Source: an uncultured Alphaproteobacteria bacterium
Lineage (GTDB): Bacteria > Pseudomonadota > Alphaproteobacteria > CAAGCB01 > CAG-977
Assembly (NCBI GenBank): GCA_944390195.1
Contig: CALXOZ010000013.1
Span: 1 to 59,172, forward strand
Direction of reading: 5' to 3'
Length of the DNA stretch: 59,172 nt
Both the position numbers and the translations under genes were made by a program. A model generated the notes under the pieces. It was not told where the DNA came from. It searched no databases and saw only the letters and a program-made list of their open reading frames with translations. Shown here piece by piece: positions 1-6,036 of the stretch. Numbering within the stretch: position 1 is the first letter of the stretch; each line of letters opens with the position of its first letter.

Positions 1-162
1 CCGTATTATGTAGACGAGCAGGGTCAAGCTTACTACGTTGATGAGAACGGCAATTCCTATTATGTCGATGCGGAAGGTAAGCCGTATTATGTAGACGAGC
101 AGGGTCAAGCTTACTACGTTGATGAGAACGGTAATTCCTATTATGTCGATGCGGAAGGTAAG
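1..162 (+). repeat. Tandem 81-bp coding repeats built from 27-bp modules
   Basis: Bases 1-81 and 82-162 are identical except for one silent change (GGC to GGT in a Gly codon). Each 81-bp unit holds three related 27-bp modules encoding YYVDxxGxx. The array probably continues upstream of the window, because copy 1 begins exactly at the edge without a visible boundary. Confidence 0.9.
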
Positions 163-690
163 CCTATTGATGTTAATCAAATAAATGAGGATCAAAAAGA
201 AGATATTGAACTACATGAAGAAGATGCAGATTCTCATACAAGTGAAGAGGGTAAGTTAAATCAAATAGACTCCTCAAATTCTTATGATGGTGAAGAAGTC
301 CGTGATGAGGTGTCGGGTGGAGAACAAAAAGACGCTGTGGCGCCGAAAATTGAACAGTCTGAGTCCTTTAATGAAAAAGGTAATGAAGACTTCAAAGAAG
401 AAAAGATGCAAATTTTTTCTGTCAAAGATGAAGCAGGAGCACAATTTGAACCATCAACGCTTCAGGCGGTTGGAGACGTATCTGAATTTCATTCTTTATT
501 GCGTTTTGACGAAACATTTTATGAACAAGCTGTAAAACCGATTTTGATTTCTCCCCCTTCCGTTGTATTTGAAGGGATGCGCCCATATAATTCTCTCATT
601 CAGGGGAGTGAGAAGCGATTGCACATTCCTTCAGATAATGTTGTTATTTCTGTAACAGAAGAAAATGACGATCCGTATGTTAAAGGATAA
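1..690 (+). CDS. Acidic repeat protein, 5' end outside window (partial)
   Basis: The reading frame is open from the first base and stops at 690, so only the last 229 codons are seen. The first 54 residues are two copies of a 27-residue unit, itself three 9-residue modules of the type YYVDxxGxx (YYVDEQGQA, YYVDENGNS, YYVDAEGKP). A strongly acidic, Glu/Asp/Ser-rich linker of about 80 residues follows, then a less biased C-terminal part (SPPSVVFEGMRPYNSLIQ). I do not recognise a family. It lies 65 bp upstream of an unrecognised helical protein and a secretin-like lipoprotein on the same strand, so a role in the same envelope apparatus is plausible but inferred. No catalytic motif is visible. An internal ATG at 310 exists, but the frame is clearly coding upstream of it. 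Confidence 0.75.
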   Translation, partial: PYYVDEQGQAYYVDENGNSYYVDAEGKPYYVDEQGQAYYVDENGNSYYVDAEGKPIDVNQINEDQKEDIELHEEDADSHTSEEGKLNQIDSSNSYDGEEVRDEVSGGEQKDAVAPKIEQSESFNEKGNEDFKEEKMQIFSVKDEAGAQFEPSTLQAVGDVSEFHSLLRFDETFYEQAVKPILISPPSVVFEGMRPYNSLIQGSEKRLHIPSDNVVISVTEENDDPYVKG

Positions 691-755
691 TGTTGCTTTT
701 TAGTGATAAAACATAATATATATAAAACAGAGGGATTTTAGACGCGGGAAAGGAC

Positions 756-1745
756 ATGGCAGAAAAAGAGATACCAGAAGCTTTATCGTCTTTATTTGAA
801 GCAATTTTAGCGTATCAGGATACGCAAGAAGGGCTGGGGCGTTTACGTTCAATGGCGCAGTCTGTATTTGGACAATCGTGGAGGGAACAAATTTCCAGTA
901 TATTGCCGGATTGTCCGGATAGTATGCAGGCACGAGTCAAAGCCAATATCGATAGAGCGTTGATATATGAAAAGGCCAGCAATGTTTGGGCGGAAGTATC
1001 GCGTATGTTAGACCCGAAACGTCAGCTTAACGTTGCCCAAGTTAAAGCTCAATTGCCGGATATGCAGCGTTGCTTGTCAATATTCGGTAAAGCCGGTCAG
1101 GAACTGATTTCAAAATTGCAGGAAAAATTAGCGCAAACGGAAGCGAATCCTGCGACGGGAGGATCCGTTGTCGCCAGTAATTATGGTTTGACGGTAGAGC
1201 AATTATGGAATTTTGACCATTTTATGCGTTTAAAGACATATTATGATCAAACGATATCAAGAACAAGCGCCCGCTGTGTTCATTTGGGAGGTTTGGAGCT
1301 CAGTCAGTACCCATATTTTGGGTATATTTTGGACTTATTGGACGAAATATTGACTTTTGGAATGGAGATTATTACGCCTCCTTATGCCCAGATTATTAAA
1401 GAACGGTATAAGGGCGGAGAGGCGGCTTTGAAAAAAGTGTTAATGGAGTATAAGACCGAGTTTGAGAACAATGCTCCACCAGAGATGTTGGCGGAAGATG
1501 AATCTCTTGATGAAATCAAGAATCGTTTGGGTGCGTTAGCAGATAGTAATGAAGTTGAAGGCGATATAGGTCCGGCTCCGGACGGTTTTGAATCACCTGA
1601 TAATATGGATATGTCTTTGTTGCAGGTGCAGCCGGTTCAATCTCAAGTTATGAATCAACAAATGACGAAAACGCCGCAGAAGATGCCTGTTAAAACGCCG
1701 GTTCAGGTAAGAATGCCAATGAAACGTCCGAAACCGGCAGGATAA
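756..1745 (+). CDS. Unrecognised helical protein in secretin-like operon
   Basis: A 329-residue protein with no signal peptide and no membrane segment, so probably cytosolic. Residues 1-250 look largely alpha-helical. Residues 265-329 are a low-complexity tail rich in Pro, Met, Gln and Lys, ending in a basic stretch (MPVKTPVQVRMPMKRPKPAG). That tail resembles the Pro/Met-rich N-terminus of the membrane protein encoded at 3012, which may hint at interaction or shared composition. The gene sits 65 bp after the repeat protein and 19 bp before the secretin-like lipoprotein, so co-transcription is likely. I do not recognise the family; it could be a cytosolic component of a pilus or secretion apparatus, but nothing in the sequence proves that. 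The ATG at 756 follows a GGGAAAGGAC stretch that can serve as ribosome binding site. Confidence 0.75.
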   Translation: MAEKEIPEALSSLFEAILAYQDTQEGLGRLRSMAQSVFGQSWREQISSILPDCPDSMQARVKANIDRALIYEKASNVWAEVSRMLDPKRQLNVAQVKAQLPDMQRCLSIFGKAGQELISKLQEKLAQTEANPATGGSVVASNYGLTVEQLWNFDHFMRLKTYYDQTISRTSARCVHLGGLELSQYPYFGYILDLLDEILTFGMEIITPPYAQIIKERYKGGEAALKKVLMEYKTEFENNAPPEMLAEDESLDEIKNRLGALADSNEVEGDIGPAPDGFESPDNMDMSLLQVQPVQSQVMNQQMTKTPQKMPVKTPVQVRMPMKRPKPAG

Positions 1746-1764
1746 AGAAGAGGTCGACAAACTG

Positions 1765-3000
1765 ATGTTTTTTCAACGACTAAAAAGATATTTGTTTATA
1801 AGTGTTTTTTTCACGCTGGTTTCTGTTTTGACCGGTTGTAAAGGAGATGTTCGTGCCGGGCGTCCTCTTATTCAAAATAACCGACCAACGTCATTGCCTA
1901 CAGAACCCAGAACAACCCGCTCTGCAGAAATGGTAAGCTTGGAATCTCCGTTACGTTGCAATATAGAGGAAAACCGGGAAAAAATAATGACGGTAATTCC
2001 TTTTAAACAGGAAGCGTTTAAACTGGAACGTTCGGAAAAAGGCGATGCTCTGCCGCGTTATGAAGTGACAGGCTTTTCTTTTAACGGGCAGACGACCGAA
2101 CATGTTTTTAATAAATTGTTAAGCGAAGCGAAAATAAAGGTAGTTGCTCAGGGCGGTCCGTTTCCCGAATTGGCGGCGGAAGATGTCACAGGAGAACTTT
2201 CCGAAGTAATGGATATGATCGCAGATGCTTCAGATGTTTATTACCTGTATAACGATCAACAAAAGACAGTGATCGTCAGTCGCGAAGTCGGATGGAATTT
2301 ACATGTTCCGGAAAGACATGAAGTCATGATTGCTGTGTTGGATTCCCTTCGCGGAGCGGGGATCCATGATTTGGTTGTGAATTGGGCGGAGAACATTGTT
2401 TCTTTTAAAGGGGACAAGGTTGTTGAAGACAAAGTTCGCAAATTGATTGAATTGTTTGATACGGAACCTCGTTTGATTGTTTTCAATGTTCAAATTTGGC
2501 GTGTGAAGCCTTATAGCCGAACAAAAGAGATCGCGTGGCAGGAACTGGTTGATATCTTTGGGGCGGACAGGATCAAGTTCATGCTTAAAGGTGTTATGGG
2601 GCGTGCCTTGGTAACCGATCATGATATTAATGCCAGAAGTTTGAAAAACTTTTTAAATTCACGCGGGTCGGTTACACAAGTGTCTGAAGGAATGTTTATA
2701 GCGGCAAATAAATGGCGTTCCCGTTTTGACGTGGGACGTTGCGGTTCCATGTCAATGCCCGAAGCCCAATTGTCGATCATGGCGCAAACGGATATGTATG
2801 CTGAACGCCGTATGAAAACAAATATTACCTTGGATACCGACCAAGGGGAAATTACAGCCTTTACAGCACATAGTAAATTGGGGGATAATATAGTTTTAAT
2901 CGGTATTCCCTCATCCTCTTTCAGTGATTCATTAAATGGGTATGAAACAATTGTTATAATGACGCCCAGCATAGTAAGATTGATAAAAGAATTTAACTAA
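1765..3000 (+). CDS. Compact secretin-like outer-membrane lipoprotein
   Basis: A 411-residue protein starting with a lipoprotein signal (hydrophobic stretch then VLTGC, lipidated Cys25). Residues about 75-165 resemble a secretin N0-type domain (fold after the FSFNGQTTEHVFNKLL segment). Residues about 170-240 resemble an N1/KH-like repeat (VVNWAENIVSFKGDKVVEDK). The C-terminal half has features of a shortened secretin domain: an ASRxxxLNSRGSVTQVS-like segment (NARSLKNFLNSRGSVTQVS), a dGxIT strand and a closing YETIVIMTPSIVRLI, which matches the usual LVILITPxIV ending. Full secretins are usually 500 residues or longer, so this is a small variant, possibly of the type IVb pilus PilN kind. It is followed after 11 bp by a bitopic inner-membrane protein. 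The secretin assignment rests on eye-level pattern matching and should be read as probable, not certain. Confidence 0.6.
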   Translation: MFFQRLKRYLFISVFFTLVSVLTGCKGDVRAGRPLIQNNRPTSLPTEPRTTRSAEMVSLESPLRCNIEENREKIMTVIPFKQEAFKLERSEKGDALPRYEVTGFSFNGQTTEHVFNKLLSEAKIKVVAQGGPFPELAAEDVTGELSEVMDMIADASDVYYLYNDQQKTVIVSREVGWNLHVPERHEVMIAVLDSLRGAGIHDLVVNWAENIVSFKGDKVVEDKVRKLIELFDTEPRLIVFNVQIWRVKPYSRTKEIAWQELVDIFGADRIKFMLKGVMGRALVTDHDINARSLKNFLNSRGSVTQVSEGMFIAANKWRSRFDVGRCGSMSMPEAQLSIMAQTDMYAERRMKTNITLDTDQGEITAFTAHSKLGDNIVLIGIPSSSFSDSLNGYETIVIMTPSIVRLIKEFN

Positions 3001-3011
3001 AGGAGGAACAG

Positions 3012-3884
3012 ATGTCATCAGAACAGCAACATCCGCCTTATCCGCCGGCATCCCAAGGTGTGAAAACCGTACGTCCTGCAGGCGTCGCGGTTAAAGGAAT
3101 GCCTCCTCATACACCAGTGGTAAAGATGCCGGGAATGAAAGTGCCTCGTCCGATGGGGATGCCCCATCAAACGGGGGGGATAAGAGGGGGATCCTATCCT
3201 GTTTCAACACCTGCCTCGTCTGTTCCTGTTCCTCCTGCCAGTGAATTCGTTATTCCTCCCAGTATTCCGGAATCGAAAGAAACAGATTTTTTTCCTCCTG
3301 TTCCTTCTGTTAATACAGCGGAAATCAATGTGGATGATGTATGGGGCGGGGAAAAAAATATTTTTACAGACGATTTGGCATCGGCATCTTTTGGAAAAGA
3401 AAAAAGAAGAACAGATGCGGATGAAGATACAGATTCTGAATATTCTTCGGATTTAATGGATGATCTGTATTATGAACAGAATCCTTACGAAAAAAATATG
3501 GCTTCCGACTTGGGGTTGCCGCCGGCGTTTATCAAAACGAAGGTTCTTGTTCCATTGTTTGTGTTTTTTTTGTTTTGCGGTGGACTTTTTGGGTATTTTA
3601 CTGCTGCTTTGAATAATAATTCGTCCTCCGAATTACCAGGTGTGGTTTATAATGCAGAGATTCCGAAAGGACGACCTCGTTGCGGTATAGCTCAAAAAGG
3701 TCAAGGATGTGTGTTATATTTAATGAATGCTCAACGTCGCGAAATAGAGGCAAAAGAATTTTTCAATATGGCGTCAGATATGTTGAACATTCCAAAATTT
3801 CAAATAGAAACATCAAATATACGATATGCGACGATGCGGATTCCTCCGGGGTATATAGCATTGATCAATGTGCCGCCCTTATAA
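3012..3884 (+). CDS. Proline-rich bitopic membrane protein
   Basis: A 290-residue protein with a long cytoplasmic N-terminus: residues 1-105 are rich in Pro, Met, Val and Gly, and residues 105-165 are acidic. One transmembrane helix lies at about 178-200 (VPLFVFFLFCGGLFGYF). The last 90 residues should be periplasmic and contain two cysteines (RCGIAQKGQGC) that could form a disulfide. A strong Shine-Dalgarno sequence (AAAGGAGGAACAG) precedes the ATG. As the last gene of the operon with the secretin-like lipoprotein, it could link a cytosolic motor or scaffold to the outer-membrane part, as PilP/TcpP-type proteins do. I do not recognise the family by sequence, so that role is inference. Confidence 0.75.
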   Translation: MSSEQQHPPYPPASQGVKTVRPAGVAVKGMPPHTPVVKMPGMKVPRPMGMPHQTGGIRGGSYPVSTPASSVPVPPASEFVIPPSIPESKETDFFPPVPSVNTAEINVDDVWGGEKNIFTDDLASASFGKEKRRTDADEDTDSEYSSDLMDDLYYEQNPYEKNMASDLGLPPAFIKTKVLVPLFVFFLFCGGLFGYFTAALNNNSSSELPGVVYNAEIPKGRPRCGIAQKGQGCVLYLMNAQRREIEAKEFFNMASDMLNIPKFQIETSNIRYATMRIPPGYIALINVPPL

Positions 3885-3929
3885 AGATTTTTCAAAGTTT
3901 ATAAAAATATTTTCGAAAAAAGACGGGAA

Positions 3930-3967
3930 AAGGAGTTGCCGGTTTTGAGGTCAACTCCTTAACTTTA
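3930..3967 (+). terminator. Hairpin closing the secretin-like operon
   Basis: Nine-base-pair stem AAGGAGTTG / CAACTCCTT with a 13-base loop, 45 bp after the stop of the bitopic protein. The following T-run is weak (CTTTAT), so termination efficiency is uncertain. Confidence 0.55.
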
Positions 3968-4047
3968 TAAGAATAAAGTATTTTTTTATCTGTTTGACTA
4001 AGAGTACATTTTTTGTCAAAAAAATTGAAAAAATGTTGAAAAAATGT

Positions 4048-4077
4048 TTGCAAAAAATAAAAAAATCGGTGTAATAT
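4048..4077 (+). promoter_or_regulatory. Putative sigma-70 promoter for iscX-RNase J
   Basis: TTGCAA at 4048-4053 and TAATAT at 4072-4077, separated by 18 bp, about 50 bp upstream of the iscX start, in a very A-rich stretch. It is the best match between the terminator-like hairpin and iscX. Upstream copies of TTGAAAAAATG are repeats of the same AT-rich motif rather than clear extra promoters. Confidence 0.45.
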
Positions 4078-4125
4078 GAATCTTAATGGACTTCGGGAAG
4101 TCTAACTGGAAAAGGAGAATAGGTT

Positions 4126-4332
4126 ATGGCGTTGAGTTGGAAAGATTATTGTGAAATAGCAGATGCATTAAATGAAGCATATCCCGACAAGGCTTTAACC
4201 GACATGAAAAATGAAGAGTTAATTCAGTTGGTAAAATCTTTAGCGGATTTTGATGATCCGAACGAACCCGATGAAACGGTATTAAGTGCCATTTGGAATC
4301 GTTGGGTTTATGTTGCATATCCCGAAGGTTAA
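4126..4332 (+). CDS. iscX: IscX-like Fe-S assembly protein
   Basis: A 68-residue acidic protein matching the IscX (YfhJ) family across its length: LSWKDYCEIADALNEAYPD at the start, ADFDDPNEPDE in the middle and AIWNRWVYVA at the end, the same order as the LxWxDxxEIAxALxExYPD, DFxDDP and AILxxWxxE segments of the family. IscX is a small adaptor that binds IscS and frataxin-like partners and modulates Fe-S cluster assembly. Here it stands alone, without iscSUA-hscBA-fdx around it, and is followed 27 bp later by an RNase J-like gene. A GGAAAAGGAGAATAGG Shine-Dalgarno region precedes the ATG. The length is normal for the family (about 65 residues). Confidence 0.85.
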   Translation: MALSWKDYCEIADALNEAYPDKALTDMKNEELIQLVKSLADFDDPNEPDETVLSAIWNRWVYVAYPEG

Positions 4333-4359
4333 TAGTTTTTATAGAGGAAAGGTAAAGTT

Positions 4360-6036
4360 ATGACTGAAAAAAGAACCGAGTTCGAATCTCTTGGCGGTAA
4401 TAACTTGGACGGAATCGGCGGCAACGCCAAAAAAATTACATATACAGCAGAAGACGGAACGAAAAGATCAATCCAAATCGATTGCGGTATGAAGTTTTCG
4501 GACAAGGCTGTAACCGGAGTGGATAATTATATCGCTCCTTTAGAATGTGACGATTTATTAATTACTCATGCCCATGCAGATCATATCGCGGGGATAGTTC
4601 ATCATATTCAAATGAATCCGGACAAGCCGTTGAATATTTATGCTGATAAATTCACACATGAATTTATGTTTGCAGAAATGACCAAACAAGGTTTGCCTTT
4701 AGATAAGATGCCCAAATTTCATGATGTGAAAGATGGTGAAAAGTTTTCAGTCAATGGCTTTGAAATTGAACCTGTTCCCGTTACTCACTCCGCTCCTGGG
4801 GCGATCGCGTTTGTTGTTGAGTCTCCGGATGGCACGCGCTTGATGGATTTGGGGGATTTTAAGACGACAAAAGTCGAACTTGGCAAAGGATGGGAAGATG
4901 ACCGTATTGCTCAGGTTTTTGCAAAAGGGATTGATGTTTGTTTTTGTGATTCCACATCAACGACCTCAAAAGAGGTCACTCCGTCCTATGACGCCGTAAC
5001 AAAAGGGTTTAAAAAAATCCTGTATGATAATCCGAATGCCCAGATGATGGTCGGGACGATTGCCCGTTCCGCTCAACAAATGATGGCAGATGTAATTGCC
5101 GTTGCGGAATATGCAAAAGAAACAGGAACAAAGCCTCGTACATTTATTTTAGACGGTGCCTCTTTGATTCAGGTAAATAACTGCTTGAACAAATCCGGTA
5201 TGAATATGAGTCAGGTTTGTTATGAACGCACAGGGGTTAGAGTAAACATTGTTGATGCAAAATCTCCCGAAGCAAAAGCGATTCCTCCTCAAGAACGCAT
5301 TTATATGGTTACTGGGACGCAGGGCGAACAAATGGCTTCGATGGCGCGCGTCGCTCGTGGAGAAAACAGAAATATTCATCCGTCTTCTACTTGTCCGAAT
5401 TTGTGTGTCAACCAGCAGGCTGTCATCCCGTCAGGCAACAATCAGGTCATTGTTGATGAAATGATGGAAATGTTGCGTGCTCAAGGCTGGAAAACCATGA
5501 TCCCTGAAAGAGGCGCTCCGTTCGTTGATGGAGAAACATATTATGTTTCTGGGCACGGACGTGCTGGGGATATGGAAAAGGTTGCAGATTTGGCGGCTGC
5601 CAATCAACCTGCGGGTCGGCCTTGTACGTTTATCGGTATTCACGGGGACGAAGCTCAAACCAAAGCAACCGAAGAAATATTTAAAAATAAAGGGCAGAAA
5701 GTCGAACATATTACAAATGCTCAAAAAGTCGTTGTTTCCAAAGGTCAAGTACAGGTTTCTTCTACGATTGGAAAAGCAAGCCGTATAGCTGTCATTGATG
5801 ATAACGATAACTTTATGGATCCAGATTTCCGTTATATCAAACAGGCATTTAATCCTGTTTCTAAGAAATGGGAAGATGTTAAGCAGATTGATTACGAGAA
5901 AATTTTGGTTTCCAAAAATGATCGTAAGCACTCTAAAGGTGGTAAGGGCGGTAGAGGTGGCAAAGGCGGTAAAAAAGGTCATCGCCGTGAGATGAGCCCT
6001 CAATTAATGCAACAAATGGCTCAGAAATATCGTTAG
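4360..6036 (+). CDS. RNase J-like metallo-beta-lactamase/beta-CASP protein
   Basis: A 558-residue protein with the metallo-beta-lactamase signature HAHADH at residues 70-75, a THSAPGA motif 3 and a LGDFKTT motif 4. Next comes a beta-CASP section with DSTST, TIARSAQQM and SGHGRAGD. This order matches RNase J, which degrades and matures RNA by endo- and 5'-exonuclease activity. The motifs are divergent from classical RNase J (HxHEDH and THSIPDS are usual), so it may be a distinct subfamily. The C-terminus carries a short basic Gly/Lys/Arg tail (GGKGGRGGKGG) before the last 20 residues, a likely RNA-binding extension. It is probably co-transcribed with iscX, 27 bp upstream, and is followed by a strong terminator. 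Nuclease function is inferred from motifs. Confidence 0.8.
   Translation: MTEKRTEFESLGGNNLDGIGGNAKKITYTAEDGTKRSIQIDCGMKFSDKAVTGVDNYIAPLECDDLLITHAHADHIAGIVHHIQMNPDKPLNIYADKFTHEFMFAEMTKQGLPLDKMPKFHDVKDGEKFSVNGFEIEPVPVTHSAPGAIAFVVESPDGTRLMDLGDFKTTKVELGKGWEDDRIAQVFAKGIDVCFCDSTSTTSKEVTPSYDAVTKGFKKILYDNPNAQMMVGTIARSAQQMMADVIAVAEYAKETGTKPRTFILDGASLIQVNNCLNKSGMNMSQVCYERTGVRVNIVDAKSPEAKAIPPQERIYMVTGTQGEQMASMARVARGENRNIHPSSTCPNLCVNQQAVIPSGNNQVIVDEMMEMLRAQGWKTMIPERGAPFVDGETYYVSGHGRAGDMEKVADLAAANQPAGRPCTFIGIHGDEAQTKATEEIFKNKGQKVEHITNAQKVVVSKGQVQVSSTIGKASRIAVIDDNDNFMDPDFRYIKQAFNPVSKKWEDVKQIDYEKILVSKNDRKHSKGGKGGRGGKGGKKGHRREMSPQLMQQMAQKYR

What the first reader, a model, noticed from the sequence alone, without database searches (positions are those of the whole stretch)
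1..3884. Compact secretin-like operon: possible undescribed envelope machine
A lipoprotein with secretin-like N0/N1 and a shortened C-terminal domain (411 residues), a proline-rich bitopic membrane protein, an unrecognised helical protein and a repeat protein lie in one run. The set is smaller than known type II/IV pilus or secretion operons and none of the partners is recognisable. The rest of the cluster probably lies left of the window.
Basis: partly seen in the sequence, partly recalled or inferred. Interest (0 to 1): 0.65.

Follow-up and report, generated by a model that had tools for sequence, protein, structure and literature searches.

The report
Shortened secretin in T4SS gene cluster
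A rumen bacterium carries, as part of a large injecting machine (a type IV secretion system), a lipid-anchored protein that looks like a trimmed-down pore-ring protein from a different family of machines, which bears on how the two kinds of machine are related.

Summary
In detail: window 756-3884 encodes a 329-aa protein, a 411-aa lipoprotein with secretin-like N0 and N1 domains and a shortened C-terminal domain, and a proline-rich bitopic protein; 1-690 is the end of a repeat-bearing scaffold protein. The "compact undescribed machine" reading does not hold. The window starts at a contig end. In relatives with unbroken contigs the set is one end of a chromosomal VirB/VirD4 type IV secretion (T4SS) cluster: VirD4, three VirB6-like proteins, a double-HTH regulator, the scaffold, then the genes of the finding. 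VirB2, B4, B8 x2, B9, a giant B10, B11 and a separate type IVb pilus set with its own full secretin lie elsewhere in the same genome. The lipoproteins form one clade across ten Alphaproteobacteria families; their best sequence relatives are full secretins, four of which directly follow virB9. Against these they lack about 50-70 residues of the secretin domain. Best reading: a secretin-derived, lipid-anchored periplasmic ring added to the T4SS outer-membrane complex, comparable with DotD and Xanthomonas VirB7. Ring formation and lack of a pore are inferred. Linked HNH-like and SUKH-like genes hint at antibacterial toxin delivery.

The parts
1..690 (+). C-terminal 229 aa of a long coiled-coil/repeat scaffold protein (YYVDE.. 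repeats); the N-terminal ~925 aa lie at the end of contig C16 (L004:11475-14249)
   Evidence: whole gene 1510 aa in G003 (L026), 1250 aa in G011 (L037), 1061 aa in G032 (L033)
1..173 (+). 27/81-bp tandem repeat inside the scaffold gene, where the assembly broke (C16 end is 93% identical)
756..1745 (+). 329-aa protein without predicted transmembrane segment, highly conserved core around residues 146-260; family of unknown function
   Evidence: (no Pfam family)
1765..3000 (+). 411-aa secretin-like lipoprotein
1765..1839 (+). signal peptide and lipobox LTGC of the lipoprotein (residues 1-25)
   Evidence: sequence; Cys in the lipobox column in 13 of 15 members by eye
2038..2286 (+). N0 domain (residues 92-174)
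   Evidence: DotD 6x62/3ady Z 9.2-9.4; Xanthomonas citri T4SS core complex chain 6gyb_A Z 6.3
2287..2463 (+). N1/KH-like domain (about residues 175-233)
   Evidence: secondary structure; PilQ/EscC/MxiD ranges
2467..2988 (+). shortened secretin C-domain (about residues 235-408); about 50-70 residues fewer between the DVGR strand and the last strand than in full relatives
3012..3884 (+). 290-aa proline-rich bitopic inner-membrane protein
3546..3608 (+). its single predicted transmembrane segment (about residues 179-199)
   Evidence: hydropathy by eye, and one segment counted in its homologues
3624..3881 (+). its conserved C-terminal domain (residues 205-290), two invariant Cys, beta-alpha-alpha-beta

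Best explanation
The four genes are the outer-envelope/scaffold end of a chromosomal, inherited VirB/VirD4-type IV secretion system of a rumen Alphaproteobacterium and its relatives. The lipoprotein descends from a full secretin of the kind that directly follows virB8-virB9 in related genomes. It keeps the periplasmic N0 and N1 domains and the core of the secretin domain, has a lipid anchor, and has lost about 50-70 residues where full secretins carry gate hairpins and the outer-membrane loop. Most likely it forms a ring under the outer membrane that stacks on or braces VirB9/VirB10 (as DotD and the N0-bearing VirB7 do) and does not form the pore itself. The bitopic protein probably joins the inner membrane and periplasm to that ring; the 329-aa and coiled-coil proteins would be its cytoplasmic scaffold. 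Shown: gene content, linkage, domain fold, shortening, single clade. Inferred: ring, location, partners, lack of pore, direction of change.
For: Linkage: on unbroken contigs of G003, G011 and G032 the operon follows VirB6/TrbL-type genes, the HTH gene and the scaffold gene, with VirD4 on the same contig; in G181 it abuts virB8-B8-B9-B10-B10-B11. T4SS identity by Pfam: TrbL, TrbC/VirB2, CagE_TrbE_VirB, VirB8 x2, CagX, TrbI, T2SSE for VirB11, T4SS-DNA_transf. Fold. Profile match to full secretins: hhalign 95.7% with the PilN set; HMM 74-87 bits to the virB9-linked secretins of G030, G129 and G143, none to the genome's own PilN at E<=10, only E 8.9 with filters off. In G143, G030, G129 and G043 the order is virB8-virB9-secretin. 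Shortening: 63-77 residues from the Cys after the DVGR strand to the last strand in the 25 of 28 proteins measured; five full relatives have 113-129 residues between the matching profile segments. One clade, 100/100. Co-occurrence: VirB9 in 16 of 20 lipoprotein genomes against 47 of 269 others, Fisher p 1.2e-8, not corrected for relatedness.
Against: No oligomer was modelled. VirB9 was not found in 4 of 20 lipoprotein genomes, three of them 78-87% complete and one 98%. In G058 and G080 no T4SS gene other than the operon itself lies beside the lipoprotein in the stretches read; in G080 only a PilR-like gene is near. Two of 15 aligned members lack the lipobox Cys, and the G100 and G296 proteins lack it too. 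The C-domain VIA Z of about 6.6 is middling. The bitopic domain's LysM-like topology had no sequence support. Descent from the virB9-linked secretins is a score comparison; the tree has long branches and does not place the clade firmly.
Confidence: 0.6

Rival explanations
1. The lipoprotein is a second, small secretin of the type IVb pilus that the same genomes carry, and its neighbourhood with T4SS genes is incidental.
For: The genome has a T4bP set (TcpQ, Secretin, PilO, T2SSE, T2SSF). Foldseek's best hit is the T4bP secretin BfpB. In outgroups and on two plasmids the homologous secretin is followed by T2SSE and T2SSF-type genes.
Against: The T4bP locus has its own full secretin next to TcpQ and PilO. 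PilN and the lipoproteins are separate clades, each 100/100. The operon sits with VirB6, or beside virB8-B11, not with pil genes, G080 excepted.
Confidence: 0.15
2. It is a complete minimal secretin that itself spans the outer membrane and forms the T4SS (or pilus) exit pore.
For: The model keeps strands over the whole secretin C-domain range, 231-406.
Against: About 50-70 residues are missing between two conserved strands, where full relatives carry the gate and outer loop (the naming of the loops is from general knowledge); no Pfam Secretin match in any of 15 members.
Confidence: 0.15
3. A free-standing, undescribed compact envelope machine.
For: No Pfam family for the three complete window proteins.
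Against: Unbroken contigs in relatives join the set to VirB6 and VirD4 genes.
Confidence: 0.04
4. Same machine, but its job is conjugation or DNA exchange rather than protein delivery.
For: VirD4 belongs to the DNA-transfer coupling family; the T4bP pairing recalls conjugative plasmids (recalled for R64; a T4bP module lies on plasmids typed as conjugative).
Against: Relaxase PF03432 was not found in 6 of 15 genomes that have the machine (other relaxase families not tested). An HNH-like gene follows VirD4 within 375 nt in 14 of 15 genomes.
Confidence: 0.3

Closest known systems
DotD of the Legionella Dot/Icm T4BSS (PDB 3ady, 6x62; PMC2951367)
   Same: Outer-membrane lipoprotein of a T4SS with a secretin N0 domain; best VIA match of the model, Z 9.4 over residues 92-174. 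Its authors propose DotC/DotD/DotH as a secretin counterpart (passages read).
   Different: DotD ends with its N0 domain; this protein goes on with N1 and a shortened secretin domain, and its T4SS has VirB9/VirB10-type core proteins.
VirB7 of the Xanthomonas citri T4SS with an N0 domain (PDB 6gyb; PMC3093366)
   Same: Lipoprotein of a VirB-type T4SS with an N0 domain (6gyb_A Z 6.3; passages read).
   Different: No N1 or secretin domain; far smaller.
PilN/BfpB type IVb pilus secretins (PDB 9u5s; TIGR02520)
   Same: Lipoprotein, N-domains plus secretin fold; top Foldseek hit; hhalign 95.7% with PilN of the same lineage.
   Different: Full secretin domain; linked to TcpQ/PilO/PilQ/PilR; separate clade.
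virB9-linked full secretins of other Alphaproteobacteria (G030, G129, G143, G043)
   Same: Next to virB8-virB9; nearest in sequence.
   Different: 466-662 aa where complete; secretin domain complete (Pfam Secretin E 6e-17 in G030).
Rickettsiales vir homolog (rvh) T4SS
   Same: Alphaproteobacterial, chromosomal, scattered, several VirB6 and duplicated VirB8 copies (rvh details recalled; PMC2653234 seen only as a listing and start of abstract).
   Different: I recall no secretin-like component in rvh; not tested here.

Membership tests
VirB/VirD4 (type IVA) secretion system | VirB4, VirB6, VirB8, VirB9, VirB10, VirB11 and VirD4 homologues in the genome | tested here: met
   (Pfam); VirB3, VirB5, VirB7 not identified
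VirB/VirD4 (type IVA) secretion system | focal genes physically linked to the T4SS genes | tested here: met
   (G003, G011, G032, G181)
VirB/VirD4 (type IVA) secretion system | transfers a substrate | not testable with these tools
   needs experiment
Secretin family | N0 and N1 periplasmic domains | tested here: met
Secretin family | Pfam Secretin (PF00263) domain at sequence level | tested here: not met
   no PF00263 hit at E<=0.1 in any of 15 members
Secretin family | complete C-domain with gate and outer-membrane loop | tested here: not met
   63-77 residues (25 of 28 measured) where five full relatives have 113-129 between the matching profile segments; which loops are missing is inferred
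Secretin family | ring oligomer, outer-membrane insertion | not testable with these tools
   no multimer tool or experiment
Dot/Icm (type IVB) system | N0-bearing outer-membrane lipoprotein | tested here: met
   lipobox in 13 of 15; location itself not tested
Dot/Icm (type IVB) system | DotC, DotG, DotH, DotL type core proteins | not tested
   core found is VirB9/VirB10 type
LysM domain (bitopic protein) | LysM sequence profile | tested here: not met
   no LysM hit in 16 members; hhalign probability 0.1, not above shuffled controls
LysM domain (bitopic protein) | beta-alpha-alpha-beta fold | tested here: inconclusive
   topology fits; best Z 4.2 (4a1i), several LysM rows, all below Z 5

The most novel reading that the evidence does not exclude
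The lineage has built a hybrid exit: a type IV secretion system whose outer-membrane complex includes a secretin-derived, lipid-anchored ring taken from a pilus-type secretin that once sat behind virB9. This would be a living link between the secretin machines and T4SS outer-membrane complexes, in a machine that delivers HNH-type nuclease toxins to neighbouring bacteria.
Probability: 0.25. Interest if true: 0.8.

Novelty: new variant of a known kind. Interest (0 to 1): 0.52.

Why it matters
N0 domains are shared by secretins, DotD and one VirB7, and the DotD authors proposed that DotC/DotD/DotH are a secretin counterpart (PMC2951367, passages). A lipoprotein that carries N0, N1 and a cut-back secretin domain inside a VirB-type T4SS, with full secretins next to virB9 in relatives, would make that link testable by comparison and by structure. 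It also adds three unnamed protein families and an apparently inherited T4SS to a little-studied rumen lineage.

Tried and rejected
Compact free-standing machine: rejected by synteny on unbroken contigs. Plasmid-borne relatives of the lipoprotein: none in the plasmid collection (tblastn, E limit 0.1). Sequence relatives of known structure: the profiles of the lipoprotein, bitopic and helical families found nothing convincing in PDB sequences. LysM identity of the bitopic domain: suggested by fold, not supported by profile comparison. DotH was not among the 50 entries listed for the lipoprotein model; this does not exclude a relation. A terminator or promoter after the operon: none found in 3700-4500. 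Literature: searches for RF32 with T4SS (0 papers), secretin with VirB9/VirB10/PilN/type IVb pilus (4), rumen with T4SS and ciliate (4), N0/DotD/secretin (27, 12 listed), Rhodospirillales/RF32 (97, 15 listed), VirB9 with SPOR domain (0), Micavibrio/VirB (1,876, 12 listed), hybrid T4bP/T4SS (23, 12 listed) and BfpB/BfpG (2) gave, in the listings seen, no description of such a protein; nor did the passages found in PMC6079354, PMC10847448, PMC11724238 and PMC3189940. The library holds only open-licence papers. 'RF32' as the order is recalled, not shown; named relatives are rumen MAGs called Alphaproteobacteria or Rhodospirillales.
Full report
What is there. The window is a whole contig, C13, of a 2.12-Mb genome in 38 contigs. 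Its first 3884 bases carry four same-strand ORFs: the end of a repeat protein (1-690, open to the left), a 329-aa protein (756-1745), a 411-aa lipoprotein (1765-3000) and a 290-aa proline-rich bitopic protein (3012-3884). No Pfam family (E<=1) was found in the three complete proteins, and the repeat protein has only sub-threshold hits; NCBIfam gave one implausible sub-threshold hit.

Where the rest is. The first 173 bases of the window are a 27/81-bp tandem repeat that matches the end of contig C16 (49078-49250 of 49256) at 93%, so the assembly broke inside the repeat. The end of C16 (L004) holds three polytopic proteins, a double-HTH protein, and the N-terminal 925 aa of the repeat protein. 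Two of the polytopic proteins match TrbL/VirB6, one above and one below Pfam's cut-off; the third is their neighbour, and VirB6-like proteins of G032 match it best. The join does not rest on the repeat alone: G003:C9 is one contig with VirD4, two membrane proteins, three VirB6-like genes, HTH, scaffold (1510 aa), helical, lipoprotein, bitopic and a metallo-beta-lactamase-fold gene; G011:C32 and G032:C14 show the same block from VirB6 to the bitopic gene, with VirD4 on the same contig.

The machine. Contig C16 also holds a VirD4-type coupling protein (Pfam T4SS-DNA_transf E 1e-56). C11 holds two VirB8, a VirB9 with a C-terminal SPOR domain, a 2149-aa VirB10 with 11 beta-flower stretches, and a VirB11; C6 holds VirB4 and VirB2. 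C6 also holds a type IVb pilus set: TcpQ, a full secretin of 527 aa, PilO, a T2SSE ATPase and a T2SSF platform protein. In G032 VirD4, the focal operon, VirB11, VirB9, VirB4 and the T4bP set lie on one 158-kb contig. In G181 the focal operon abuts virB8-B8-B9-B10-B10-B11, convergently. This is a VirB/VirD4 T4SS, in G000 spread over several contigs, with a type IVb pilus set beside it.

The lipoprotein. It is found in 18 of 77 genomes (own and relatives) by single sequence and in 25 of 289 sampled genomes of the class by profile. Of these 25, 20 are the short form (ten families) and five (G030, G129, G143, G110, G043) are longer secretins or, for G043, a fragment cut by a contig end. Of 28 short-form loci examined, the helical gene was found next to it in 25; in the other three (G006, G163, G286) the held DNA ends at or within 123 bases of the lipoprotein gene. 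The bitopic domain was found in 23 of 28, plus G032 in a longer stretch; G196, G080 and G286 seem to lack it, and for G081 only 1.5 kb was held. The hits to the helical gene in G196 and G080 are weak and short. The named relatives in public records are rumen MAGs or unnamed-source MAGs called Alphaproteobacteria or Rhodospirillales (7 loci).

Fold. AlphaFold2 with 15 aligned members gave pLDDT 81.5 and pTM 0.73, with residues 20-57 of low confidence. Foldseek's 27 PDB hits at E<=0.001 are secretins or secretin chains of larger complexes, BfpB first; the low TM-scores show that domains, not the whole arrangement, match. VIA-align puts DotD first for residues 92-174 (Z 9.4, 2.4 A, 81 residues); the X. 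citri T4SS chain 6gyb_A also appears (Z 6.3), but so do other proteins with that fold, such as phage hub proteins. The C-domain rows (9k8v, 5wq8, 7ofh, 5w68 and others) align 101-117 residues of the model's ~175 to target ranges that span about 220-270 residues.

How it is shortened. The lipoprotein profile matches the virB9-linked full secretins from the N-domains to the DVGR strand and again at the last strand. Between these two segments the five full relatives G143, G129, G030, Rhodoferax plasmid and Methylibium plasmid have 117, 118, 129, 116 and 113 residues, for about 58-61 profile positions. In the short form 63-77 residues lie between the Cys after that strand and the last strand, in the 25 of 28 proteins where the pattern could be measured. 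The alignment puts the gaps after the DVGR strand, in the middle, and just before the last strand; that these are the two gate hairpins and the outer-membrane loop is my reading from general knowledge of secretins. Two cysteines (C65, C326) are invariant in 15 of 15 aligned short forms; the long secretins in the alignment lack them.

Origin. A maximum-likelihood tree of 36 proteins makes the short forms one clade and PilN another, each 100/100 (rows G163, G042 and G043 were left out as partial or divergent). It has long branches and does not place the short forms firmly. The profile does not see the genome's own PilN at E<=10 (8.9 with filters off) but sees the virB9-linked secretins at 74-87 bits, and in G143, G030, G129 and G043 the gene order is virB8-virB9-secretin. 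G110 has the T2SSE and T2SSF-type genes but no VirB9 was found beside it or in the genome. Descent from a secretin sitting behind virB9 is therefore likely, not shown.

Co-occurrence. With the five long forms counted among the others, VirB9 (CagX) is in 16 of 20 short-form genomes and 47 of 269 others; PilO is in 10 of 20 and 12 of 269. Relatedness is not corrected for. VirB9 was not found in G081, G100, G163 and G176 (completeness 78, 98, 87 and 80%).

Partners. The bitopic protein's last 86 residues fold confidently (pLDDT 92.4) as beta-alpha-alpha-beta with two invariant cysteines in 16 of 16. Foldseek has no significant hit; VIA lists several LysM domains, best Z 4.2, but a profile comparison with LysM domains of the same genomes gave nothing above shuffled controls. 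A peptidoglycan link, as for TsaP or FimV with pilus secretins (recalled), is therefore only a guess. The 329-aa protein has a highly conserved core (24 invariant columns in 13 proteins) and no known relative.

What it may deliver. In 14 of 15 genomes an HNH-like gene lies within 375 nt of VirD4 (distance between match ends); in G080 it lies elsewhere. Its HNH motif looks degenerate, while several paralogues keep HHK-P--GGG-N (motif read by eye). Pfam HNH and Col-Pyo_DNase are weak hits to the paralogues (best E 0.016 and 0.014). The next gene is SUKH-like in the three loci read (G000, G181, G080), and a further homologue beside an HNH paralogue in G003 hits SMI1_KNR4 at E 5.7e-5, just under the cut-off. 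HNH nuclease plus SUKH immunity is a known toxin-immunity pattern (recalled), so antibacterial delivery is plausible. Relaxase PF03432 was found in 9 of 15 genomes and so is not needed for the machine's conservation. Two ankyrin-repeat genes on C16 would fit a eukaryotic target instead.

Verdict. The sequence observation is right and the separate-machine idea is wrong. The lipoprotein is a new variant of a known kind: a secretin-derived lipoprotein in a VirB-type T4SS cluster.

Noticed in passing
L006:13024-14388 and L006:12579-13013 (contig C16), next to VirD4; L229, L230, L231: A VirD4-linked protein with a degenerate HNH-like domain and a proline/tyrosine-rich N-terminus, followed by a SUKH-like protein; HNH-like paralogues, some in tandem, elsewhere in the genomes (up to 8 matches per genome, some of them split hits of one gene). 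Candidate nuclease toxins and immunity proteins, or an adaptor derived from such a pair.
   Followed up: partly
L113:10080-16529 (contig C11): VirB10 of 2149 aa (2521 in G005, 2831 in G032; split in two genes in G058 and G181) with 11 stretches matching the 5-fold beta-flower family before the TrbI domain.
   Followed up: partly
L113:16505-17977: VirB9 with a C-terminal SPOR (peptidoglycan-binding) domain, Pfam E 5e-6; no paper with both VirB9 and SPOR domain in one search.
   Followed up: no
L004:1357-1986 and 2186-3235: Two paralogous proteins with a shared core, one with a lysine-rich repetitive tail, between VirD4 and the VirB6 genes; no Pfam family.
   Followed up: no
L006:4364-7011: Two ankyrin-repeat genes and a Fic/Doc gene near a serine recombinase on C16, upstream of the VirD4 block.
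   Followed up: no
window 4360-6036: Metallo-beta-lactamase-fold protein (558 aa, by eye of the ribonuclease J type) that follows the operon in G000, G003, G005, G009 and G061 but not in G011, G032 or G058; function link unknown.
   Followed up: no
G000:C14:24434-26521 (L228:8408-10633): A second VirD4-like protein (37% identical) with no T4SS gene recognised beside it in the stretch read; a second copy is present in most relatives searched.
   Followed up: no
L040, L156, L157 (G030, G143, G129): Loci with virB8-virB9-full secretin; in G030 and G129 followed by a T2SSE ATPase and a T2SSF-type protein, as if a pilus set were built into the T4SS operon.
   Followed up: partly
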